From contig NZ_AP012324.1 in NCBI RefSeq assembly GCF_001025175.1, positions 620,001 through 684,000 on the forward strand: 64,000 nt of DNA. The letters are read 5' to 3'. Of this stretch, positions 8,739-62,756 are shown one piece after another; within the stretch, counting starts at the first letter, position 1, and the number at the start of each line of letters is the position of its first letter. The notes under the pieces were generated by a model. That model saw only the letters and a program-made list of their open reading frames with translations, had not been told where the DNA came from and did not search any database. The DNA comes from Bifidobacterium breve DSM 20213 = JCM 1192. GTDB taxonomy: Bacteria; Actinomycetota; Actinomycetes; Actinomycetales; Bifidobacteriaceae. Both the position numbers and the translations under genes were made by a program.

Positions 8739-10268
8739 ATGCGATTCAGCGACATTCTGCGACTGTGCAGACAGAACCTATGGCGACGTAAATCCCGCAC
8801 AATACTGACCGTGTTGGGCGTCATCGTCGGATGCTGCTCGATTGTGCTCATGATCTCCCTCGGGCAGGGCATCAACGAGCAGAATGAGAAAATGCTCAAA
8901 TCGATGGGCGACCTATCCATCGTCACCGTCTACACCAGTGGCGGCTATGCCGGGCCGATGGGCGGCGGGAACGGATCATCGTCGGCATCCAGCGATGCCA
9001 AGCTCGATGACAAAGCGCTCGAATCGTTCCGCTCGATGAGCGGCGTATCCGGCGTGACTCCGATAATGAACTTCCCCTACAACGTCACGGCCAAGGCCGG
9101 CGCAGGTGGACGGTACATCTACGATCACGTGCAGATCATGGGCATCGATATGAGCCAGTTCGAACAGATGGGCTACAAAATGGTCGATGGCGGCAAGCCA
9201 ACCACCAAAGACCAGGTTCTTGCCGGTGAATGGTTTGCTTACGGGTTCATGGACACGTTGAAAAACGGTGAGATGCGTACCGGCACCCGTGGCAGCGGCT
9301 ATTCGTCTTGCACATTCAATTCGGCCACCGGCGAATGCGAGCCGGATCAGGATGAGGACCCGTTCTTCGACCCGCTCACCACGCAAATCAGCCTGACCAC
9401 CGGAACCAACTATCAGGGCGACCCATATGTGCAGAACATGTACGGCGGGGGAGGCGGAACGACTGTTGGAAGCGACCAATCCGACAACGTCACCATCGAT
9501 CTGCGTGCGTCCGGCATTATCGGCGGCGATTACAACAAGGGATATGCCACGGCGGACGGTCTGGTCATGGATTTGCAGGCGCTCAAGGATTTGCGCGCCA
9601 AAGTCGATCCGGCCGCCGCCAAAAAAACCGTCACCTACGATCAGGTGTTGGTCAAGGCTGCGGATCTTTCCTCCGTGCCCGAAGTGGAATCGCAGATTAA
9701 GGCGCTTGGCTACGAGACTTCGTCCTATGAGGACATGCGCAAGTCGTTGGAGGAGCAGTCGCGAGCGATTCAGCTGATTCTGGGCGGCATTGGCGCGGTC
9801 TCTCTGTTGGTGGCGGCCATCGGCATCGCCAATACGATGGTCATGTCCGTGACCGAGCGCACGCGCGAGATCGGCATTATGAAGGCGCTCGGCTGCTACG
9901 TGCGTGATATCCGCGTCATGTTTTTGACTGAAGCCGGCGCAATCGGATTCTTTGGCGGATTGATCGGATGCATGCTGAGTGGATTGATATCGTTGGGCAT
10001 CAATGTGGCCGGCAGGATGTATGCGGGTGGCATGGTCGGCAGCTCAAACGGAAGTTCCGGCGATGGTGCTGGTGGCACATCCATATGGATGATTATGTGG
10101 CAGGCATTGGTCGGAGGTGAGGACGTGACCCGCTATTCGGTGATTCCGTGGTGGCTGTTCCTGTTTGCAGTGCTGTTCTCCACGCTAATCGGCCTGCTGT
10201 TCGGCTTCGGTCCAGCCAACAAAGCCGTCAAAATCCCGGCCCTGGATGCCATCAAAAACAACGAGTGA
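8739..10268 (+). CDS. MacB-like ABC transporter permease (FtsX domain)
   Basis: This 509-residue permease has an N-terminal membrane helix around residues 20-45 (TVLGVIVGCCSIVLMISLGQ), a large extracellular MacB-type periplasmic-core-like domain, and three C-terminal FtsX helices (near 340-370, 390-420, 470-495). The block SVTERTREIGIMKALG before the last helices is typical of the family. The extracellular loop has Gly/Ser-rich insertions. Together with the two upstream genes it forms a complete export or membrane-extraction system of the MacB type. Its 3' end overlaps the convergent DXS-family gene by 17 bp. Confidence 0.9.
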   Translation: MRFSDILRLCRQNLWRRKSRTILTVLGVIVGCCSIVLMISLGQGINEQNEKMLKSMGDLSIVTVYTSGGYAGPMGGGNGSSSASSDAKLDDKALESFRSMSGVSGVTPIMNFPYNVTAKAGAGGRYIYDHVQIMGIDMSQFEQMGYKMVDGGKPTTKDQVLAGEWFAYGFMDTLKNGEMRTGTRGSGYSSCTFNSATGECEPDQDEDPFFDPLTTQISLTTGTNYQGDPYVQNMYGGGGGTTVGSDQSDNVTIDLRASGIIGGDYNKGYATADGLVMDLQALKDLRAKVDPAAAKKTVTYDQVLVKAADLSSVPEVESQIKALGYETSSYEDMRKSLEEQSRAIQLILGGIGAVSLLVAAIGIANTMVMSVTERTREIGIMKALGCYVRDIRVMFLTEAGAIGFFGGLIGCMLSGLISLGINVAGRMYAGGMVGSSNGSSGDGAGGTSIWMIMWQALVGGEDVTRYSVIPWWLFLFAVLFSTLIGLLFGFGPANKAVKIPALDAIKNNE

Positions 10269-12357
10269 TCGCCTCTGTCACCTGCTCCACCGTCAGTCCA
10301 TAACGTTCGTTCAGTTCGCCCAGCGGCACGCGGTCGGTAAATTCCTTGGCTGCGCCGAAGTTCAGCACACGAGGATTGCGGCTGCTGTCCGAGACATGAT
10401 GATTCGCATAGTATGCGGTCACCTTCTCACCCCAGCCGCCTTCCAGCTGCCCGTCTTCAAGCGTGACGACCAGCTCGTGGCCGTCGCGCAACGATTCCAG
10501 CGCATCCGCATCCAACGACGTGCACTGGCGCGGGTCGATGACCGTTGCCTTCATGCTATGTTCGGCGGTCAACGCGGCAGCCACCTGCTCCGCAAGCGGA
10601 TATGCGTTGCCCAATCCGGCGATCGCAACCCGCGAACCAGTCTGATTAATACGCCAAGCCAAGGGGTCGCTCCCGTTGGTGGGCTGAGCCGTTACGCCAG
10701 CAACTCGGTGTGCTGCGGATTTGCTCCCGCTGGCGGGAGCTGTCGACACAGTCGACTGAGGGTGGCCAACCTGAACCCGTCCACCCGTCACCGGCAACAA
10801 ACTCGGCTCCCGTTCCGCAGCCAGAATCGCCTCACCCGGCACCCGAATCACCACCGGTCCATCGGGAGCTCCATCGGCTCCAGCCGGCAGCGTCGCCCAT
10901 GCCAAATCGGCCAGACACTCATCTGCCGAAGTGGGCACCAGCATCGTGATGCCAGGAATATTGGCGAACATCGCCACGTCATACGCGCCGGAATGCGTGT
11001 TGTCGGAACCGGATAGGCCGCCTAGGAAATCAAGCACCGTCACCCGAGACCGGTTCAGGCTCATCTCCTGGAAGAACTGGTCATAGGCGCGTTGGAAGAA
11101 TGAGGCCGTAGTGGCCACCACTGGTGTGCCGCCAGCCCGTGCGATGCCAGCTGCGAAAGCCACGGCATGCGATTCGGTGATGCCTGTATCCACATAATGC
11201 GAGCCTGCGCGTTCGCGGAATTCATGGGTGATGCCGTTCGACCCTGGCGTGGCGGGGGAGATGACCACCAATCCCGGTTCGCTGGCAAATCGCGGTTCGA
11301 GCGCGGCCATTGCCATCTTGCCATAATATTTGCGCGGATCATCAGGCTTGCCGATGGCGGAATCCGGGTTCTGCCAATGGGAGGCTTCGCACTGACCCTC
11401 ATGCGGTTCATGGTCGGACAGATTACAATGATCCGAATGCCACGGTTCACGGTGCGATAGATTGCTGGACGGGTGGATTCCGGTGGCGGAGCTGGTGGGC
11501 TCGCCGTCGTAGCCGGCACCCTTCAACGTGTGGATATGCACCACAACAGGGTGGTCGATATTGCGTACTTCCTCAAATGCCGCTACCAGCGCATCCACAT
11601 CATTGCCATGCTCCACATAACGGTAATCCAGTCCGAATGCGTTGAATAGGTTCGGTTGTGCAGTGCCACCCGAGGCGCGCAACCGGGCGAGTGTCCCGTA
11701 CATGCCGCCGAAATCACCGGCGATCGACATCTCATTGTCGTTGAGAATAATAATGAGATTGCCGCCTTGCTCAGCGGCGTTATTCAAGCCTTCAAATGCC
11801 ACGCCCGAGCTTAGCGAACCATCGCCGATAACGGCAACTACATTGCCGATGCCGCTATCGGGCCCCTCCATATTGCGGGTTTTCGCCAATCCGCAGGCCA
11901 ATGAAATTGAGGTACCGGTATGCCCCAGCACGAACTGGTCATGGTCGCTCTCGTCCGGGTTCGTGAATCCGGTCACGTCGCCGAATCGGTTTGTGTCCAG
12001 ATAGGCGGCAGCGCGGCCGGTGAGCATTTTATGCACGTAACTTTGGTGGGAGACATCGAATACAATGCGGTCATGCGGTGAATCAAACACGCGATGCAGT
12101 GCGACGGTGGCTTCCACCATGCCCAGATTGGAGCCTATATGCCCGCCGTGAATATGGCCGTAATGCAGTAGGGTGGTGCGAATTTCGCGGCATAGCTCAT
12201 TCAGTGTATTGGGGGAGAGTGCTTTGACGTCGGCAGGGCTGGTAATGCGACGCAGCAGGGTGACATCAGCGAGATTGCCTGAGTCGGTGGAATGAGTGTT
12301 GTCGATTGCGCCGCTGGCATCGTGTGCACTGATTCCGTTTCCCGGCATGCTATGCAT
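10252..12357 (-). CDS. dxs: 1-deoxy-D-xylulose-5-phosphate synthase family protein
   Basis: The roughly 701-residue product has the transketolase-fold architecture of DXS: FDVSHQSYVHKMLTGR, GHTGTSISLACGLA, a thiamine-diphosphate GDGSLSSGVAFEGLNN motif, NDNEMSIAGDFGG, and the central pyrimidine-domain block with GSDNTHSGAYDVA. DXS joins pyruvate and glyceraldehyde-3-phosphate at the start of the MEP isoprenoid pathway. The frame opens at 12384, but GGAGG overlaps that upstream ATG and fits ATG 12357, nine codons later, better. A palindromic element copy (10723-10765) encodes a linker peptide late in the protein. The GHTGTSIS segment differs from the usual GHSSTSIS, so a related transketolase-like activity cannot be excluded. 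Confidence 0.82.
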   Translation of the reverse strand: MHSMPGNGISAHDASGAIDNTHSTDSGNLADVTLLRRITSPADVKALSPNTLNELCREIRTTLLHYGHIHGGHIGSNLGMVEATVALHRVFDSPHDRIVFDVSHQSYVHKMLTGRAAAYLDTNRFGDVTGFTNPDESDHDQFVLGHTGTSISLACGLAKTRNMEGPDSGIGNVVAVIGDGSLSSGVAFEGLNNAAEQGGNLIIILNDNEMSIAGDFGGMYGTLARLRASGGTAQPNLFNAFGLDYRYVEHGNDVDALVAAFEEVRNIDHPVVVHIHTLKGAGYDGEPTSSATGIHPSSNLSHREPWHSDHCNLSDHEPHEGQCEASHWQNPDSAIGKPDDPRKYYGKMAMAALEPRFASEPGLVVISPATPGSNGITHEFRERAGSHYVDTGITESHAVAFAAGIARAGGTPVVATTASFFQRAYDQFFQEMSLNRSRVTVLDFLGGLSGSDNTHSGAYDVAMFANIPGITMLVPTSADECLADLAWATLPAGADGAPDGPVVIRVPGEAILAAEREPSLLPVTGGRVQVGHPQSTVSTAPASGSKSAAHRVAGVTAQPTNGSDPLAWRINQTGSRVAIAGLGNAYPLAEQVAAALTAEHSMKATVIDPRQCTSLDADALESLRDGHELVVTLEDGQLEGGWGEKVTAYYANHHVSDSSRNPRVLNFGAAKEFTDRVPLGELNERYGLTVEQVTEAITRCF
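10723..10765 (-). repeat. Palindromic element copy inside the dxs-like gene
   Basis: The segment starts with an inverted pair (GCTCCCGC then GCGGGAGC), continues with a second dyad around GTCGACACAGTCGAC and ends in GAGGGTGG. In the minus-strand gene it is read in frame as a peptide beginning HPQSTVSTAPASG. The same element recurs at 20417, 29928, 40966, 45573, 45645, 50905 and 50961. Confidence 0.8.
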
Positions 12358-12566
12358 ATCCTCGAATCTCCCTCCACAATTCATACCGAAATCGACATGC
12401 TAGCGCTGCGCAGGCGGCAACGTGCGCGGATGAGGGCAATACCCTCAACATCTCCGTAAATACTGCAAATACTGCGGCGATGAGGAGGGATAGCGGATTT
12501 GATACAGCATGCAGCATGGATGGGCGGTGTTCACAGAGTGTTGTGTGGGAAAATAAAGGAGGTAAT

Positions 12567-15340: not shown

Positions 15341-15769
15341 ATGGTTGAACATATCGAACGCCAGACCAAGCAGAAGGACGCGATTCGCGCCGCCTTGGCC
15401 GACTGTGAGGAGTTCATCTCCGCTCAGGACCTGCACCGCAGGCTGGAGGACGAAGGCTCGAAAATCGGCTTGGCCACCGTGTACCGCCAGCTCAACGCCT
15501 TGGCCGATGCCGGTGCCGCCGACACGATCCGCCTGGACGGCCAGCAGCTGTTCCGCCTATGCGGCGACGACGGACATCACCACCACTTGGTGTGCAAGCG
15601 GTGCGGCAAAACCGTGGAAATCGACCCGCCCAGCGAGGCTTGGCTGCGCAAAGTGGCCGACGGCCACGGCTTCACCGTCGAATCCCACACCCTGGAGGTC
15701 TTCGGACTATGCCCTGATTGCCAAAAGGAGCAGAAAGCGCAGAAGGCTCAGAAAGCAGTGAGCGAATAA
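15341..15769 (+). CDS. Fur-family metal-responsive transcriptional regulator (first copy)
   Basis: The product of about 142 residues has a winged helix (SKIGLATVYRQLNALADAG near residue 47) and the Fur metal-site motif GHHHHLVCKRCG near 87, with a second CXXC (LCPDC) near 128, typical of the structural zinc site. A GTG at 15329 overlapping the purK stop is an alternative start; ATG 15341 is preferred because it begins at the family's normal first helix. The Lys/Gln repeat tail is variable. Zur, Fur or PerR identity cannot be settled from sequence; proximity to eroded Zur-type genes makes Zur attractive. It is cotranscribed with purEK and ends in a terminator. Confidence 0.88.
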   Translation: MVEHIERQTKQKDAIRAALADCEEFISAQDLHRRLEDEGSKIGLATVYRQLNALADAGAADTIRLDGQQLFRLCGDDGHHHHLVCKRCGKTVEIDPPSEAWLRKVADGHGFTVESHTLEVFGLCPDCQKEQKAQKAQKAVSE

Positions 15770-15809
15770 CAAATGGGATCGGCTTCAAAGCCGATCCCAT
15801 TTGTTATTC
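15764..15809. terminator. Bidirectional terminator between fur-like gene and dead permease
   Basis: A nearly perfect inverted repeat has arms of 21 bp (15764-15784 and 15789-15809). It is flanked by T-rich sequence on the right and A-rich sequence on the left, so it can end transcription from both directions. It includes the stop codon of the upstream gene. Confidence 0.85.
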
Positions 15810-19059: not shown

Positions 19060-19112
19060 AACTGGCAGAAATCCCGCGTTTCAACGAGGCCTGCGCGGGA
19101 TTTCTGCCAGTT
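19060..19112. repeat. Perfect 19-bp-stem hairpin with extra half copy at 19157-19171
   Basis: Arms 19060-19078 and 19094-19112 are perfectly complementary and contain GCAGAAATCCCGCG. TTTT follows on the plus strand and the outer AACTG is on the other side. A third copy of the right-arm core (CGCGGGATTTCTGCC) stands at 19157-19171, and a related pair is near 22024-22075. The hairpin may terminate transcription, but its recurrence suggests a dispersed element. Nothing else is visible in 19020-19227. Confidence 0.65.
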
Positions 19113-19227
19113 TTGAGCCCTATAAAGGCAGAGCCCCCGCGTACCTTTCGTTGTAACGCGGGATTTCTGCCGATATGGGGCGAGTCATGGCGCAGCGCAG
19201 TGCTTTCCATTTCGGGAGACGCGTCAT

Positions 19228-19985: not shown

Positions 19986-21113
19986 CTACGCTCCCATCAC
20001 CAGATGGGCGGCAATCGCGGCGAGGAAGCAGGCCGCCGCCACGGTCGCGATGAACCGGATGATGAACCGTGGCCGGCATTCCGTGGCCAGCATCAGCGTG
20101 TTCTTGAGGTCGAGCATCGGGCCGAAGACCAGGAAGGCAAGCATGGCGGAGACCGGCAGCGCGCCAATCATGCTGGCGGCGATCACCGCATCGGACGTAG
20201 AGCACAGCGAACACAGGAACGCCAGTCCCATCGCCGCCAGAATCAGTACGATGGCACCAGCGTCATCGAGCGTACTTGAACCGTTGGTCAACGACGACAA
20301 TGCGGTGCGCATGATGGAGGCAATGATCGTGCCGAACAGCAGAATCGGCATCATCCGCATAAAGTCGTCATGCGTATGCCGAATGAAATGCGTGAACCGC
20401 TCCAATCCACGCCCCGTGCCCCGCCGGCGGGGCTGTCGACAAAGCCCGACTGGGGGGTGGCTCTCAGGCGAATCACCCGTCGCCCCTGCACAATCCTCGC
20501 AAACCAACGACCGCCCAATCGTCAGCGGCCTCTCACGTACCGCAGGGGAGCGGGGCGGCCACACCGCGAACGACACCCCCGCGACTATCGCCACTACCAT
20601 GCCCAACCCCGCGCGGGCCGCCACCATTCCTGGTTTGTCGGTGAATGCGAACCATGTGGACCATATCGCCATCGGATTCATCACCGGCACTGCGCACAGA
20701 AACGTCACCGCACACGGCAGCGGCAGGCGTTTGCGCATCAGATTCGCGAACGTAGGCACCACCATGCAATCGCACACCGGTAGGCACAGACCGGCCACCA
20801 ATGCCGCGGCCAGTCCGCCGGCCAACGATTTCGGTATGTGGCGGGCCAGAAAATCGGCGCTGACGAACGTGCTGACCGCGGCCGACGTCATCGCGCCCAG
20901 CAGCATGAACGGAATCGCCTGCAGGATAAGCCCCGCGGCACCGGTGCCGATACGCACCAGCGGAACCGGAAACCCACGCGACTCGAGCATCGCGGAAGCC
21001 GCAATCAGGAACGCCACCAGCGGCGTGCCGATAATCAGAAACAAATAGTTCGCCGAATGGTCCTGTTGCGCGGTGTTCACCTGTTCCGTGCGCTGCGTGC
21101 GAGGTTCTTTCAT
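19986..21113 (-). CDS. YcgR-like (DUF318/UPF0718) permease
   Basis: The product of about 375 residues has eight or so membrane helices and the family's Cys-containing GLCLPVCDCMVVP motif near residue 110, plus FLCSLCSTSDAVIAAS near 305. AGGTGA precedes ATG 21113, which is favoured over ATG 21131. The central cytoplasmic loop holds a palindromic element copy (20417-20460) that adds about 15 residues without breaking the frame. The gene forms a two-gene operon with the YcgQ-like partner. The substrate is unknown. Confidence 0.85.
   Translation of the reverse strand: MKEPRTQRTEQVNTAQQDHSANYLFLIIGTPLVAFLIAASAMLESRGFPVPLVRIGTGAAGLILQAIPFMLLGAMTSAAVSTFVSADFLARHIPKSLAGGLAAALVAGLCLPVCDCMVVPTFANLMRKRLPLPCAVTFLCAVPVMNPMAIWSTWFAFTDKPGMVAARAGLGMVVAIVAGVSFAVWPPRSPAVRERPLTIGRSLVCEDCAGATGDSPESHPPVGLCRQPRRRGTGRGLERFTHFIRHTHDDFMRMMPILLFGTIIASIMRTALSSLTNGSSTLDDAGAIVLILAAMGLAFLCSLCSTSDAVIAASMIGALPVSAMLAFLVFGPMLDLKNTLMLATECRPRFIIRFIATVAAACFLAAIAAHLVMGA
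20417..20460 (-). repeat. Palindromic element copy inside the ycgR-like gene
   Basis: The segment has the paired CCCCGCC/GGCGGGG dyad, the GTCGACAAAGCCCGAC second dyad and a terminal GGGGGGTGG, matching the element at 10723 and 40966. It is read in the minus-strand gene as SHPPVGLCRQPRRRGT. This is a different frame from the other two coding copies because of extra C/G bases, yet the gene stays open. Confidence 0.78.
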
Positions 21114-21204
21114 GCGAATATCACCTGCCATATCGCCGTCATATTAGCACCGTACGCATGATAGTGGTCGAGATAATATGCGAGTTCCCCGCATGCCGAT
21201 GGTA

Positions 21205-28864: not shown

Positions 28865-29902
28865 TTACTTCAGTACGATTTGCGTGCCGGTGGTGTCGGC
28901 GGTGATGGAGCCGAGCACGTAAGCGGGCTCGTTGTTGTCGGTGAGCAGCTTCAGCGCCTCGTCCTTGCGGGCGGGGTCGATGGCGAGTACCATGCCGATG
29001 CCCATGTTGAAGATGTTGTACATCTCCTTGTGATCGATGTTGCCGGCCTTCTCCAGCACATCGAAAATCGGGAGCACAGGCCAGGTGCCGAGCTCGATCT
29101 CAGCGGCCAGGCCGTCCGGAATCATGCGCGGGATGTTCTCGATGAAGCCGCCACCGGTGATGTGGGCCACGCCCTTGACCACGCCTGCCTTGAACAGCGG
29201 GGAGAGAGCCTTGACGTAGATCTTGGTGGGGGTGAGCAGCACGTCGCCGAGCTTTTCGCCGTCCAGCTCGTCAAGTTCGGTGTCCACGGTGTAGCCAGCC
29301 TGCTCGAACAGGGCCTTGCGCACCAGAGAGAAGCCGTTGGAGTGTACGCCGGTGGAGGGCAAGCCGATGAGCACATCGCCCTCGGCAATGGTGGAGCCGT
29401 CCACGATGGCGGACTTTTCGGCGACGCCGACCGAGAAACCAGCGAGATCGTATTCGTCCTCGTCGTACATGCCCGGCATTTCAGCGGTTTCACCGCCGAC
29501 CAGTGCAGAACCGGCCTGCACGCAGCCGTCGGCCACGCCGGCTACGACCTGCTCGAGCAGAGCCGGATCGTTCTTGCCGCAGGCGATGTAGTCAAGGAAG
29601 AACAGCGGTTCGGCACCCTGAGCGGCGATGTCGTTGACGCACATGGCCACGCAATCGATGCCGATGGTGTTGTGCTTATTTGCCATCTTGGCGACCATGA
29701 GCTTGGTGCCCACGCCGTCGGTACCGGAGATGAGAACCGGCTCTTTGTATCCAAGGGAAGCCAGGTCAAAAAGGCCGCCGAAGCCGCCGATACCGCCGAC
29801 CACACCGGGGCGGTTCGTGCGAGCCACGTGCGACTTGATGCGCTTGACGACTTCGTACCCGGCTTCGACGCTCACGCCGGCGTTCTCATATGCTTGTGGC
29901 AT
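28865..29902 (-). CDS. purM: Phosphoribosylformylglycinamidine cyclo-ligase PurM
   Basis: PurM closes the imidazole ring, making AIR from FGAM with ATP. The 345-residue product has the characteristic [16 protein letters not shown] near residue 37, [11 protein letters not shown] near 58 and [20 protein letters not shown] (near 137). Length matches the family. Its product AIR is the substrate of PurK, encoded at 14 kb. It lies between purF and purD with a palindromic element in the purF-purM gap. Confidence 0.97.
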
Positions 29903-29927: not shown

Positions 29928-29974
29928 GGCTCCCCTCTGAAGGGGAGCTGTCGGCAAAGCCGACTGAGGGGAGG
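29928..29974. repeat. Palindromic element copy between purF and purM
   Basis: The copy reads as a CTCCCCT/AGGGGAG dyad, then CTGTCGGCAAAGCCGACTG, then AGGGGAGG. It matches the coding-region copies at 10723 and 40966. In the purF-to-purM transcript it forms a hairpin, so it could affect coupling or RNA stability. The remaining bases of 29903-30018 show nothing else. Confidence 0.8.
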
Positions 29975-30018: not shown

Positions 30019-31530
30019 TTACTGGGCATCCGGCTGCACGGTGTTGTACTCGTTGCCGATGTACTTGCTCTTGTACAGCGCGAATTCAGGCAGACGCACA
30101 CGGTCCTCGGGCGTGAGGGACTTCAGGAAGTCGGCCTCGTAGTCGTCGAGCGCGGTGGGGTAGTCGCCGTTGAAGTAGGCGACGCACAGGCCACCGTATG
30201 GGGCGTCGGCGTTCAGTCCGATGGATTCGACCAGACCGTCCAGAGATAGGTAGGCCAGCGAATCGGCACCAATGTAGTCGCGAATCTCTTCCACGCTCAT
30301 CTTGGCTGCGATGAGTTCTTTGGTGGTGGAGATGTCGATGCCGTAGAAGCACGGGTACTTGAGCGGCGGCGAGCTGATGCGCATGTGCACTTCGGCGGCG
30401 CCGGCCTCCTTCAGAAGCTGGACGATGCGGCGGGAAGTGGTGCCACGCACGATGGAGTCATCGATGACGATGACGCGCTTGCCCTTGACCACGCCGCGCA
30501 CGGCGGACAGCTTCATGCGCACGCCCTGCTCGCGCAGCTCCTGCGTGGGCTGGATGAACGTGCGTGCCACATACTGGTTCTTGATCAGGCCCATTTCGTT
30601 AGGCAGGCCGGCGGCTTCCGCGTAGCCGGAGGCTGCGGACAGGGAGGAGTTCGGCACGCCGATGACCATGTCGGCGTCCACCGGTGACTCCTGTGCCAGG
30701 CGTGCGCCCATGCGCTTGCGGGCGGAGTGCACGTTGATGCCGTAGATGTTGGAATCCGGGCGGGCGAAGTAGATGTATTCCATCGAGCAGATGGCCAGCT
30801 GCGTGTTGTTGGTGTACTGCACGATCTTGTAGCCGTGGTCATCTACCACCACGATTTCACCGGGGCGGATGTTGCGCACCAGCTCGGCGCCGACCACATC
30901 GAGGGCACAGGTTTCGGAAGCGAGCACGTAAGCGCCGTTCTTCATCTTGCCGAGGGAAAGCGGGCGGAAGCCGTTCGGGTCGAGCGCGCCGATCATGGCG
31001 TTCTCGGTCATGAGCAGATAGGCGAAGCCGCCGTGCACGGTGTTGAGCGCTTCCTTGAGCTTGTCCATAAAGGTGCGTTGCAGGGAGCGGCGGATGAGGT
31101 GCATGAGCACCTCGGTGTCGGAGTTCGAGTGGAAGATCGCGCCTTCGTCTTCCAGCTTGCGGCGCAGTGACGGGCAGTTCGTCAGGTTGCCGTTGTGGCA
31201 CAGAGCCACGTCGCCATCATGGAAGCGGAAGATGAACGGCTGGATGTTGTCCGTGGTGCCGGAGCCGGCCGTGGCGTAACGCACGTGGCCGATGGCTCGG
31301 TCGCCTTTGAGCCGTTCGATTTCGCGCTCATCGCTGAACACCTGGGTGAGCAGTCCGAGTCCGCGGTGGCCGGTCAGATGGCCGTGATCGTTGGAGACGA
31401 TGCCGGCACCTTCCTGACCGCGATGCTGCAGCGCGTGCAGGCCGAAATAGGTAAGTCGGGCGGCGTCGGGGTGGCCCCACACGCCGAAGATGCCACATTC
31501 CTCGTGAATGTCTTCGAGTTCAGCCGACAA
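30019..31530 (-). CDS. purF: Amidophosphoribosyltransferase PurF
   Basis: PurF catalyses the first committed step, transferring glutamine amide nitrogen to PRPP. The 503-residue product has a short propeptide and the nucleophile Cys at residue 12 ([16 protein letters not shown]), [11 protein letters not shown] near 34, and the PRPP-binding [18 protein letters not shown] near 354. It is first of the purF-purM-purD group. An unknown 28-bp inverted-repeat element lies upstream. Confidence 0.97.
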
Positions 31531-31609: not shown

Positions 31610-31766
31610 CAGCGAATCATTCTCAATAAGAAAAGTGTGCGGGTGGAAGGCGGCGAAATGAACATTGGTCACCGAGAAGCCCTGATATTCCGTCAATTGT
31701 GGAAATGTTCGATTGTGCCGAGATGTTTGGATTGCTCGCACTTTTCTTATTGAGAATGATTCGCTG
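31610..31766. repeat. MITE-like inverted-repeat element
   Basis: Two perfect 28-bp arms (31610-31637 and 31739-31766, containing GAATCATTCTCAATAAG) face each other around 101 bp without a convincing gene. The structure of long terminal inverted repeats and a short non-coding interior is like a miniature transposable element. It fills most of the space between divergent purF and the polymerase gene. No clear target duplication was found. Confidence 0.7.
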
Positions 31767-39011: not shown

Positions 39012-40378
39012 GCCGACGCTCCTTTCTCCACATGCACGCCAGCGATGTTCATACGGCCGCTGATGCCCTGCGTGGCGAGGATCCGGCACAGATTCTTGAT
39101 GACGTTCAGATCATGGTAGATGGTGGAGATGCCGATACTCAGGTCGTCGCCGAACGAGCAGACCGTGAAATTCAGGCTGGCCGGTGTGGTGAGGAAGCTC
39201 ACCGAACGCACATGGCGCGCGAGTCGTTCGTCCAAGGTGACTCGGCCAAGGTTCGAGACGGTGGTCGTGGTCTCGCGGTCGGCGATGAACCGGGCCAGCT
39301 CCAGCACCCAGTCCTTGGCAGGGGAGGGCGCGAGACGCAGCGCCGGATTCTTTTCCAGCGCAATCATGCGGTTCATATGCGATTCGACGCGCTCGCGACT
39401 GGTGGCATGGCCGAGCTGCTCCTGCACATGGCGGGCGATGTCGGCCAACGGCTCATCGGTCAGCAATCCACCCATACCGTTGCCGTGCGCGGTGCGGGTG
39501 GCGGACTGCCGATCGTCGCCGGTCGCGTCTGGGCTCGTTGCGGAAGTTTTCGCGGAGTCCTCATCGGCTTCGATATCGGCCGGCGTGTACGCCACGTAAG
39601 TCATGCCGTAGAAGTTGCGCACGGTCTCCGACTTGAAGAAGGCGCGCAAGTCGACCGGAATATCCACGCGAATCGCGCGATTGCGGGCGCGCGAGGGCAT
39701 GACGTCGCGAATCGCGCACAGTATCGCGGCGATGAGGTAGGAGGTGAGGCTCACTCCGCACTGATGTGCTGCACCAAGCACCTTGCTGGCGCTGACGTGA
39801 TATTCCATGAACGTGGGCGCGGCCCGGTCGATGGGGCCGGCCAGCCGGTAGATCTTCGTGCCTGGCGCGGCGCCGGTTTTGTCCCGTTCGTAATATTTGT
39901 CGAAGCTGTTTTCGGCTTTGTCGCTATCCGAACCGTCGTAATCCGAAGGCACGCCCGGCACGTCGTACCGCTCGGCGATGTAGGCGTGCAGCAGTGACTT
40001 GAACAGGTTGATGGCGCCGCGACCGTCCGAAATGATGTGCGAGACCTCGAGATTGACACGATTGCGGAAATAGCTTACGCGGAACAGCATGCTTTTGGGT
40101 CCGTAATGCAGTCGCGAGCATATCGGCAGATGTTCCGGCTCCACCAGCGGCCGGCCGTCTGACTGTTCGAGGTAATGCCAAAACATGCCGTTGAGCAGGT
40201 GCACGTTGAAGCTCGGGAACTGGGCGATGGCATGGTCGAGCGCGTGCTGCAGGATGTCCGGATCGATGTCGTCCGCCAGCTCGGCCGAATAGCGGAACAC
40301 GGTCTGCGAGGAGCGGCCAGCCTGGGAGGAGTAGAACTTGCCGATGTTGTCTAGTCGGTACCAAGTACGTCTTGCCAC
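39008..40378 (-). CDS. Alcohol acetyltransferase/condensation-domain-like acyltransferase
   Basis: The 456-residue product has the chloramphenicol-acetyltransferase-like fold of the condensation/WES superfamily. Its active site appears as HIISDGRG near residue 112 (compare HHxxxDG), followed by a DFRW-like C-terminal half with a TTTVSNLGRVTLDERL segment near 372. It has no membrane helix or carrier-protein domain. It would move an acyl group from CoA to an alcohol or amine. Its start overlaps the hydrolase stop by 28 bp and its stop overlaps the DUF6320-like start, so all three genes are translated together. The product is not known. Confidence 0.75.
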   Translation of the reverse strand: MARRTWYRLDNIGKFYSSQAGRSSQTVFRYSAELADDIDPDILQHALDHAIAQFPSFNVHLLNGMFWHYLEQSDGRPLVEPEHLPICSRLHYGPKSMLFRVSYFRNRVNLEVSHIISDGRGAINLFKSLLHAYIAERYDVPGVPSDYDGSDSDKAENSFDKYYERDKTGAAPGTKIYRLAGPIDRAAPTFMEYHVSASKVLGAAHQCGVSLTSYLIAAILCAIRDVMPSRARNRAIRVDIPVDLRAFFKSETVRNFYGMTYVAYTPADIEADEDSAKTSATSPDATGDDRQSATRTAHGNGMGGLLTDEPLADIARHVQEQLGHATSRERVESHMNRMIALEKNPALRLAPSPAKDWVLELARFIADRETTTTVSNLGRVTLDERLARHVRSVSFLTTPASLNFTVCSFGDDLSIGISTIYHDLNVIKNLCRILATQGISGRMNIAGVHVEKGASA

Positions 40379-41649
40379 GCGTCGCCTCCCTCCGGTGCGT
40401 TGGCGGTGGTGCCGGTGCCGGGAGCTGGTTCCAGCGGTGCGCCGTCGAGGAAATGCTTGATGATTCGGTAGGTGGTGGCCACCAGTCCCACGGCCGACGT
40501 ATTGAGCAGGTAGCCGTGGATGCCATCGTGAATTCGGTAACAGGAGACGTTGTCGTTCACCAATTGCAGGCGACGGGCGTACGCTTCATCCTCGTCTCTG
40601 AGCGGGCAGTATTCGGCGGACAACACCAGCGTGCGCGGCTGATTGCTTAGGTCGTGCGCGGTCAGCGGCGCGAAATACGGATTGGTCAGGTCGGCCACGG
40701 ACGAACGGTACATGTCGATGTAGTCGGCCATGTCCTGTGCGGTGAGGATGTAGTCGGTGCCGTTGGTCCGCACCGATTCGAACGGGCTGGTCTCGGGATT
40801 GTAGTCGTTGCCGACTACCGGGTAAAGCAGCATCTGCGTGCGCGGCATGAACTCGCCGCGGTCGCGGGCCATGAGCGAGACGGCGGTCGCAAGATTGCCT
40901 CCCGCGCTGTCGCCAAACAGCACGATGCTGTCGGGATCCGGTGCTGGGATTGTCGCAGATATATCGCCCCCGCCGGCGGGGGCTGTCGGCGCAGCCGACT
41001 GGGGGTGGTCAACATCAACAGAACCACCCACCCCAGAAATCGGCAATTCCCCAGCAAACAGCTGCCGGGCTACCTCATAGCAATCCTCAACAGCAGTAGG
41101 AAAGCGGTATTCAGGAGCCAGCCGGTACTCGACTGAGATCACACGGCGTTGCAGACGTACGGCCATATGCGCGCAAGCCTGCGTGTACAGGTTGATGCCG
41201 CCTGTGGTCCAACCGCCACCGTGGAAAAACAGGATCGTGCCACGCGGCGTGACTGAGGGAAGTTCCGTGTTGGCATTGCCGGAAATACCGTCGGCGTTGC
41301 CGCTCGACGTGCTTTCCTTGATGGGTATTTTGGGTAGGACTTTGGGTAATACGGCGGGCAGAATCGCGGATATTGCCGAGGCCACTGGCGTGCCACTGGC
41401 GGAAGATTCCTCCAGGGCTTCGGGCAGGGGCGCTCCATAGGCGACCAGCGGCGTGAACACTCGCAATGGTACGGCATATCCATCCGCCATAGGCGCGAAG
41501 GCGTCCTCGACACGGCATTTCGGATTGGCGGGTGCCTGCTTGGCGATAAGCTCTTCCGCCACGCGCTGCAATTTGTACGACTTGCCCGCGTTGGGCTTGA
41601 TGTAGCTGGCGGCCTTCATCGCGGCGAACAATGCCTCGTTGATCGGCAT
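40351..41649 (-). CDS. HSL-family alpha/beta hydrolase (esterase/lipase)
   Basis: The start ATG at 41649 has AAAGGAC about 10 bp upstream. The 432-residue product carries the HGGGW oxyanion-hole motif near residue 132, the nucleophile motif GDSAGG near 233, an Asp in the CPLRDEDE region and a His in HDGIHGY near 393, a full hormone-sensitive-lipase-type triad. It would cleave esters in the cytoplasm. A palindromic element (40966-41008) inserts a peptide before the nucleophile block. It is the first gene of a three-gene operon. Confidence 0.85.
   Translation of the reverse strand: MPINEALFAAMKAASYIKPNAGKSYKLQRVAEELIAKQAPANPKCRVEDAFAPMADGYAVPLRVFTPLVAYGAPLPEALEESSASGTPVASAISAILPAVLPKVLPKIPIKESTSSGNADGISGNANTELPSVTPRGTILFFHGGGWTTGGINLYTQACAHMAVRLQRRVISVEYRLAPEYRFPTAVEDCYEVARQLFAGELPISGVGGSVDVDHPQSAAPTAPAGGGDISATIPAPDPDSIVLFGDSAGGNLATAVSLMARDRGEFMPRTQMLLYPVVGNDYNPETSPFESVRTNGTDYILTAQDMADYIDMYRSSVADLTNPYFAPLTAHDLSNQPRTLVLSAEYCPLRDEDEAYARRLQLVNDNVSCYRIHDGIHGYLLNTSAVGLVATTYRIIKHFLDGAPLEPAPGTGTTANAPEGGDAWQDVLGTD
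40966..41008 (-). repeat. Palindromic element copy inside the hydrolase gene
   Basis: The segment has the CCCCCGCC/GGCGGGGG dyad, GTCGGCGCAGCCGAC and a GGGGGTGG end. Read on the minus strand in frame it encodes a peptide starting DHPQSAAPTAPAGGG, close to HPQSTVSTAPASG in the dxs-like gene. It falls in a loop between two conserved blocks of the hydrolase. Confidence 0.82.
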
Positions 41650-41725
41650 GACGACAAGTCCTTTCAGCGGCGGATTCGGTAGTGCGAACACCCCAACCTT
41701 AGCCTATGACCGGCGTGAACAAAAA

Positions 41726-45572: not shown

Positions 45573-45691
45573 TTGGCTCCCCTCTCTGAGGGGAGCTGTC
45601 AGCGAAGCTGACTGAGGGGAGTTGTCATGGCGGTGAACGTCTTGACCTCCCCTCAGTCGCCTATCGGCGACAGCTCCCCTCAGAGAGGGGA
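45573..45691. repeat. Inverted pair of palindromic elements between purC and purL
   Basis: One copy (45573-45620; CTCCCCTCTCTGAGGGGAG, GTCAGCGAAGCTGAC, GAGGGGAG) faces an inverted copy (45645-45691; CTCCCCTCAGTCG, CGACAG, CTCTGAGAGGGGAG) across 24 bp. In a transcript the two would pair as one long stem of about 45 bp. The whole purC-purL gap (45521-45727) consists of this and short flanks. Confidence 0.8.
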
Positions 45692-45727
45692 GCCAGCTAT
45701 ATGTTCTGCTACCTGCACCTAAACGAC

Positions 45728-62583: not shown

Positions 62584-62649
62584 AGTAGCCTTTCCTGAAA
62601 CCGCTGAATCCTGCTGAAGACACAACGATTTCATGCAATGTCAAATCGT

Positions 62650-62712
62650 GTGTAGGAACTATCAGCAGTGTGCGGTTCGAAACAAGTTCAGGCGGGTCCC
62701 ATCGCCGAATCC
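62650..62712 (-). ncRNA. Fluoride riboswitch (crcB motif)
   Basis: On the minus strand the segment has GGCGATGGGACCCGCC, a short loop with AAC, then CTGCTGATAGTTCCTAC. These match the conserved blocks of the fluoride aptamer: GGCGAUGG, CCGCC and CUGAUGxxUCCUAC. GGGAC and GTTCC can form the pseudoknot. Downstream, TCAGCAG (62611-62617 region) is complementary to CTGCTGA in the aptamer's 3' side, giving a plausible expression switch, and the crcB start is about 70 nt further on. The crcB pair is the expected target. Confidence 0.85.
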
Positions 62713-62756
62713 CAGCCTACTCGTGCAGAAGACATCCATGGGTGTGTCGCCGTTTT

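What the first reader, a model, noticed from the sequence alone, without database searches (positions are those of the whole stretch)
40966..41008. The element enters genes in frame and encodes a shared peptide
In the hydrolase it reads DHPQSAAPTAPAGGG and in the dxs-like gene HPQSTVSTAPASG: the same frame and almost the same peptide in two unrelated proteins. A third copy in the ycgR-like permease (20417) is read in another frame but also keeps the gene open. This parallels the Rickettsia palindromic elements and could be a source of new protein segments.
Basis: partly seen in the sequence, partly recalled or inferred. Interest (0 to 1): 0.75.

Follow-up and report, generated by a model that had tools for sequence, protein, structure and literature searches.

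The report
Palindromic repeat translated inside Bifidobacterium proteins
A short repeated DNA palindrome scattered through some Bifidobacterium genomes also sits inside genes for core enzymes, nearly always in the same reading frame, so that it would add the same small floppy peptide to unrelated proteins, much as a known repeat does in Rickettsia.

Summary
The window is Bifidobacterium. The repeat is a ~45-bp REP-like double hairpin with tail, in two subtypes: 119 pattern hits in this genome against 8 for the reversed pattern; hits in 34 of 101 same-genus genomes. Of 271 copies tested, 23 were called intragenic. One was dropped and one moved to the true gene on the other strand. The resulting 22 all use one frame per orientation: 12 antisense (DHPQSAxPTAPASG), 10 sense (SRWRELSAxPTEGG). 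Hosts include LysA, UvrC, TruB, HemW, CydDC, Lhr, a Dxs-like protein and the window's hydrolase. Two departures are known: ArsP permease (two 1-base indels) and a DHO_dh gene (frame 0). Open frames alone predict about 40%; with the departures counted, P is about 2e-4. Sites are mostly interdomain linkers or variable loops; the hydrolase insert is low-confidence coil in AlphaFold2. In the five host genes aligned, most relatives lack it. Most likely: an RPE/REP-like repeat whose genic insertions survive where they add a tolerated disordered loop. No Y1/RAYT transposase is in this genome. Translation and mobility are inferred. New member of a known kind.

The parts
40966..41010 (+). Type-B repeat copy in the hydrolase gene: hairpin 1 40966-40983, hairpin 2 40985-40999, tail 41000-41010; antisense to the gene, read DHPQSAAPTAPAGGG
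40351..41691 (-). Host gene: alpha/beta hydrolase (PF07859 Abhydrolase_3), 446 aa
40951..41031 (-). Extra loop of the hydrolase (residues 221-247): pLDDT under 50, coil, between helix 199-212 and strand 256-261; absent from the aligned homologues other than G045
10723..10767 (+). Type-B copy in the Dxs-like gene, antisense to the gene, read HPQSTVSTAPASG; in the linker between Transket_pyr (match ends 498) and Transketolase_C (match starts 577)
10252..12384 (-). Host gene: Dxs-like protein (PF13292, PF02779, PF02780), 710 aa
20418..20460 (+). Decayed type-B copy in the permease gene; two one-base differences shift its frame
19986..21131 (-). Host gene: ArsP_1 permease (PF03773), 381 aa
29928..29973 (+). 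Type-A copy between two minus-strand ORFs (28865-29902 and 30019-31530)
45574..45695 (.). Type-A inverted pair between genes (32-nt outer arms, 94% complementary); at the same place G045 keeps only the outer arms

Best explanation
It is a family of REP-like palindromic repeats that has spread, often as inverted pairs, through a subset of Bifidobacterium species. Shown here: the copies, conserved pairing with compensatory changes, copies inside conserved genes in one preferred frame per orientation, host sites that are mostly interdomain linkers or length-variable loops, and relatives without the insert. Inferred: copies land in genes at any phase, most insertions break the gene and are lost, and those kept are in frame, free of stops, and read as a small-residue-rich peptide (DHPQSAxPTAPASG or SRWRELSAxPTEGG) in a loop that tolerates it. 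The peptide is then a roughly neutral, disordered extension that slowly decays. How the repeat moves is unknown; no Y1/RAYT transposase was found in the genome.
For: Frame: of 271 copies tested, 23 were called intragenic, 22 in frame 2 of their orientation and 1 in frame 1. The frame-1 case (L193) is a wrong-strand call; the gene on the other strand is LysA and reads HPQSASRTAPASG, antisense frame 2. L209 had no Pfam match on either strand and was dropped. That leaves 22 of 22 in frame 2: 21 in genes with Pfam matches and the G045 orthologue of the hydrolase, shared by descent. In 248 non-genic copies the open frames 0/1/2 number 205/112/227 antisense and 48/134/107 sense (sums over subtypes), so frame 2 is expected at 42% and 37%. 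With the two known departures counted, 8 of 10 distinct antisense host genes and 7 of 7 sense ones give a combined P of 1.9e-4 (Lhr and LysA enter once in each orientation; GH42, ArsP and DHO_dh come from outside the caller). Sites: between Pfam or NCBIfam matches in the Dxs-like protein, CydDC, HemW, UvrC, Lhr (twice), one S9 peptidase, GH42 and a radical SAM protein. Orthologues without it: hydrolase, Dxs-like, LysA and ArsP, TruB. Structure: hydrolase insert 221-247 under pLDDT 50, core blocks mostly above 90. Covariation: inner-stem pairs 236 and 240 of 248, shuffle maxima 158 and 178. Subtype B is genic in 17 of 90 copies, A in 5 of 117, untyped in 0 of 63.
Against: Two departures: a DHO_dh gene with an antisense copy in frame 0 near its start, missed by the caller and found by eye, and the frame-shifted ArsP copy. 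Near-terminal copies were not surveyed fully; a lenient caller lost four earlier positives, among them the Dxs-like copy. By GRAVY the preferred frames are not the most hydrophilic ones (type B antisense frame 0 is -1.25, frame 2 -0.71). Not every site is between domains: the second S9 copy in L206 (735) lies inside a Peptidase_S15 match. All 23 called copies keep both tested stem pairs, so the nucleic-acid structure itself may be maintained. The LysA model is poor (mean pLDDT 65). No proteomics. No clean target-site duplication was seen, and the one well-aligned intergenic site in G045 keeps the outer arms, so excision or erosion is as good a reading there as insertion.
Confidence: 0.8

Rival explanations
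1. The frame preference comes only from stop codons: other frames carry TGA, so nothing about the peptide is selected.
For: In non-genic copies sense frame 0 is open in only 48 of 248 and antisense frame 1 in 112 of 248. Restricted to antisense frames 0 and 2 and with the DHO_dh exception counted, 8 of 9 has P of only 0.028.
Against: Antisense frame 0 is open almost as often (205 of 248) as frame 2 (227 of 248), and sense frame 1 more often (134) than frame 2 (107), yet 8 of 10 distinct antisense and 7 of 7 sense hosts use frame 2.
Confidence: 0.25
2. The insertions are ancestral protein segments or old single events inherited by descent, so the shared frame counts few events.
For: The hydrolase insert is shared with G045; TruB of G000, G045, B. 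stellenboschense and B. leontopitheci carry it in the same loop, and G041, G101 and G110 have eroded-looking RWxxL stretches there.
Against: Host genes are unrelated; LysA carries it in opposite orientations in different species (antisense in G000, L204, L193; sense in L188/L326), and G045 at 92% identity lacks it. Distinct genes, not copies, were used for the conservative test.
Confidence: 0.2
3. The genic copies are kept for their nucleic-acid structure (mRNA stability, pausing or DNA binding), and the peptide is a by-product.
For: 23 of 23 called genic copies keep both tested stem pairs.
Against: Pairing is about as good outside genes (236 and 240 of 248), as expected for young copies; presence is patchy between congeners.
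Confidence: 0.15

Closest known systems
Rickettsia palindromic elements (RPE)
   Same: Palindromic repeat found in frame inside unrelated conserved genes with a recurring peptide (passages of PMC2229807 and PMC10969869); truB is a host in R. conorii (PMC3733652, section 15).
   Different: RPEs are 105-146 bp (PMC2229807 passage) and live in AT-rich alphaproteobacteria (recalled); this unit is ~45 bp, GC-rich, in Actinomycetes. Sequence relation was not tested.
REP / BIME repeats (GTAG and CGTC superfamilies)
   Same: Short high-copy hairpins, often in inverted pairs; some lie inside genes such as uvrA, uvrB and truB (PMC3733652, abstract and section 15).
   Different: The consensus shows no GTAG or CGTC tag at the stem foot, and no RAYT was found in this genome.
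Enterobacterial RU-1/ERIC, RU-2, RU-3 and Neisseria Correia MITEs
   Same: Small non-autonomous repeats with open frames fused in frame to genes (PMC2229807 passages, PMC2759123 abstract).
   Different: Those are 103-168 bp, most with terminal inverted repeats and several with target-site duplications (PMC2229807 passage); no duplication was evident here.

Membership tests
REP repeats | 20-40 bp palindrome in high copy number | tested here: met
   119 hits up to 3 mismatches, control 8; paired stems; unit slightly longer, ~45 bp
REP repeats | Units often in inverted pairs | tested here: met
   122 of 248 non-genic copies have an inverted tail within 110 nt, 35 of 248 in the reversed control
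REP repeats | GTAG or CGTC tag at one end of the stem | tested here: not met
   not seen in the consensus of 112 type-A and 73 type-B copies
REP repeats | Association with a RAYT (Y1_Tnp) gene (GTAG class) | tested here: not met
   0 in own genome; 4 of 101 congeners, of which only G017 also has the repeat; no copy up to 2 mismatches in the 7 Y1_Tnp loci of ~3.4 kb
Rickettsia palindromic elements | Palindrome inserted in frame in unrelated conserved genes with a recurring peptide | tested here: met
Rickettsia palindromic elements | Sequence homology to an RPE family | not tested
   no RPE sequence was fetched or compared
Rickettsia palindromic elements | Insert is translated and the enzyme stays active | not testable with these tools
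   needs proteomics and assays
MITE | Terminal inverted repeats | tested here: inconclusive
   present in the pair at 45574-45695, but about half of the non-genic copies show no inverted tail nearby
MITE | Target-site duplication and cognate transposase | tested here: inconclusive
   no duplication evident in five aligned sites; only Y1_Tnp transposases were searched

The most novel reading that the evidence does not exclude
A few loops of core enzymes (TruB, LysA, the Dxs-like protein, Uvr proteins) are general landing pads for unrelated palindromic repeats across phyla: in G001 the Dxs-like linker and the TruB loop carry a different repeat-like sequence (HFERSEA / HLERSTAESRD) where other congeners carry this one, and TruB is also a reported REP or RPE host in Rickettsia, Stenotrophomonas and other Proteobacteria. 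The one main surviving frame per orientation would then show selection for a peptide fit for such loops.
Probability: 0.3. Interest if true: 0.7.

Novelty: new member of a known kind. Interest (0 to 1): 0.52.

Why it matters
In-frame coding palindromes are best known from Rickettsia and some other Proteobacteria. A GC-rich counterpart in a gut genus, with empty orthologues in the same genus, would let the neutral-insertion idea be tested directly: does the peptide change activity, why one frame, and why do unrelated repeats choose the same loops, such as TruB's? It also warns annotators that near-identical peptides in unrelated proteins can be repeat-derived.

Tried and rejected
RAYT mobilisation: no Y1_Tnp in the genome, 4 of 101 congeners; rejected as the mover here. 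Other transposase families were not searched.

Known RNA family: at gathering thresholds Rfam gave only a tRNA and a fluoride riboswitch in the window.

Wide distribution: the exact type-B pattern found 23 stretches in the genome-contig collection, all titled Bifidobacterium (records very near the window's genome may be left out). In 394 genomes of the class (from this genus only the window's own) this genome plus two genomes with one 1-mismatch hit each matched; the reversed control had five single hits. Type A was not sought outside the class.

One search listed 24 candidate ORFs picked by eye, with mixed frames. Those that did not pass the flank coding test were left out of the count; one of them, 2053907, proved to be a DHO_dh gene in frame 0 and is reported as an exception. 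The lenient caller's hits at 912398 (no Pfam match, between two plus-strand ORFs) and L184 (a 2-mismatch match without hairpin 1) were rejected. L209 was dropped.

A tie between the base before the core and the tail base (A-A 181, G-G 52 of 248) was seen; subfamily or structural, not resolved.

Literature: seven searches, of which I saw the listed rows only (at most 15 each, of up to 1,411 papers). No listed title or abstract start was about coding palindromes in Bifidobacterium. PMC3733652 does not mention Bifidobacterium in its main text, nor does PMC10969869. Only openly licensed PMC papers are held, so this is not proof of absence. Ogata 2002 was not held. PMC6649704 and PMC2635572 were seen as passages and added nothing used here.

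First alignment scripts did not orient the loci and were redone; one search found no coordinates in the file headers and was redone.

Full report
Observation. The window is bases 620001-684000 of a complete 2,269,415-base genome. Copies of one repeat lie at 10723-10767, 29928-29973, 40966-41010 and in a pair at 45574-45695; a decayed copy is at 20418-20460. The permease is ArsP_1, the hydrolase Abhydrolase_3, and the third host is Dxs-like.

The repeat. Two subtypes appear in the consensus of non-genic copies (112 and 73; 63 more are untyped): A, tgGctCCCCTCt.tGaGGGGAGCTGTC.gCGaAGc.GACTGAGGGGAG, and B, GCtCCCGCTGGCGGGaGCTGTCgGCGaAGCcGACTGaGGGTGGTc. The inner stem varies with compensation: 236 and 240 of 248 non-genic copies pair at the two variable positions, shuffle means 139 and 160. 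In 122 of 248 there is an inverted tail within 110 nt, against 35 in a reversed control. The pattern with at most one mismatch is in 34 of 101 congeneric genomes sampled, with 1 to 265 hits in those, reversed control 0.

Copies inside genes. Copies were fetched without regard to gene context: this genome, loci of pattern scans, and 20-kb stretches of relatives rich in copies. A three-periodic coding score on both flanks, outside the repeat, called genes. An earlier run gave 20 of 250, all in frame 2; the final one gave 23 of 271, 22 in frame 2 and one in frame 1. Pfam showed the frame-1 case to be a wrong-strand call whose true gene, LysA, reads HPQS in frame 2, and L209 to be without support on either strand. 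So 22 remain, 12 antisense and 10 sense, all in frame 2; 21 are in genes with Pfam matches and one is the G045 hydrolase. Outside the caller, GH42 at 461648 and TruB in G000 and G045 agree. The exceptions are DHO_dh at 2053907 (frame 0) and ArsP. A more lenient caller gave 23 of 279: sense frame 2, 11; antisense frame 2, 10; antisense frame 0, 1; sense frame 1, 1. The last two and one of the sense frame-2 calls were judged false. It found the diverged Dxs-like copy of G045 and the GH42 copy, but lost four earlier positives, including the window's Dxs-like copy.

Is the frame more than stop avoidance? Of 248 non-genic copies, frames 0/1/2 are open in 205/112/227 antisense and 48/134/107 sense. 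Counting distinct host genes, 8 of 10 antisense (P 0.016) and 7 of 7 sense (P 0.00095) combine to 1.9e-4. Restricted to antisense frames 0 and 2, 8 of 9 gives only P 0.028. In both subtypes the preferred antisense peptide has the highest share of small or polar residues of the six frames, and the preferred sense peptide the highest of the three sense frames; by GRAVY they are not the most hydrophilic. So peptide tolerance probably adds to stop avoidance, though the sample is modest and I assigned hosts to distinct genes by hand.

Sites. Copies lie between the domain matches shown for the Dxs-like protein, the CydD-CydC fusion, HemW, UvrC, Lhr (two sites), one S9 peptidase, GH42 and a radical SAM protein; in L206 one S9 copy lies inside a Peptidase_S15 match. 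Orthologue alignments show length-variable loops: hydrolase (17 of 19 rows lack it) and Dxs-like (28 of 30), LysA (29 of 32) and ArsP (11 of 12), TruB (27 of 31 without a clear copy, some perhaps eroded). LysA of G045, 92% identical, lacks it. AlphaFold2 puts the hydrolase insert (221-247) in a coil under pLDDT 50 between a helix and a strand, with core blocks mostly above 90; the LysA model is weak (mean 65) but its low stretch 222-271 contains the insert. In B. stellenboschense TruB the two inserts fall between positions matching 91-105 and 160-164 of the chain 1sgv.

Recurrence. LysA carries the repeat in four lineages and in two orientations. TruB carries it in G000, G045, B. stellenboschense (twice) and B. 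leontopitheci. In G001 the Dxs-like linker and the TruB loop instead carry a different repeat-like sequence, HFERSEA / HLERSTAESRD. Di Nocera and colleagues (PMC3733652; abstract, section 15 and passages seen) list REPs in truB of S. maltophilia, E. lithoralis and S. alaskensis, recall RPE-1 in R. conorii truB, and list REPs in excinuclease genes (genus names such as Sphingopyxis are expanded from memory). This parallel was noticed after the fact and carries no P value.

Mechanism and status. Best reading: a non-autonomous REP-like repeat; genic insertions are filtered by frame, stops and site; survivors are disordered loops. Shown: sequence, pairing, frame, sites, relatives without it. Inferred: movement, translation, neutrality. 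It works like an RPE, but membership in RPE or tagged REP families is not claimed: the GTAG/CGTC tag and RAYT link are not met, and RPE homology was not tested.

Noticed in passing
window 40351-41691(-), residues 88-143 of the hydrolase: A second long low-confidence stretch (pLDDT under 50) rich in small residues and Pro; origin not followed.
   Followed up: no
L088 and L379 (G001): A different repeat-like sequence (TCATTTCGAGCGAAGC..., read HFERSEA) sits in the Dxs-like linker, three units, and a related one in the TruB loop.
   Followed up: partly
genome-wide repeat copies: The base before the core and the tail base are tied (A-A 181, G-G 52 of 248), though they do not face each other in a hairpin.
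   Followed up: partly
G000:C1:2053907 (L109): Antisense copy near the start of a DHO_dh gene, read in frame 0 (PSVTSGDSS): the one clear frame exception.
   Followed up: yes
window 62646-62715(-): Fluoride riboswitch (RF01734).
   Followed up: no
window 31610-31637 and 31739-31766; 15764-15809; 19064-19171: Other perfect or long inverted repeats not matching this family's pattern.
   Followed up: no
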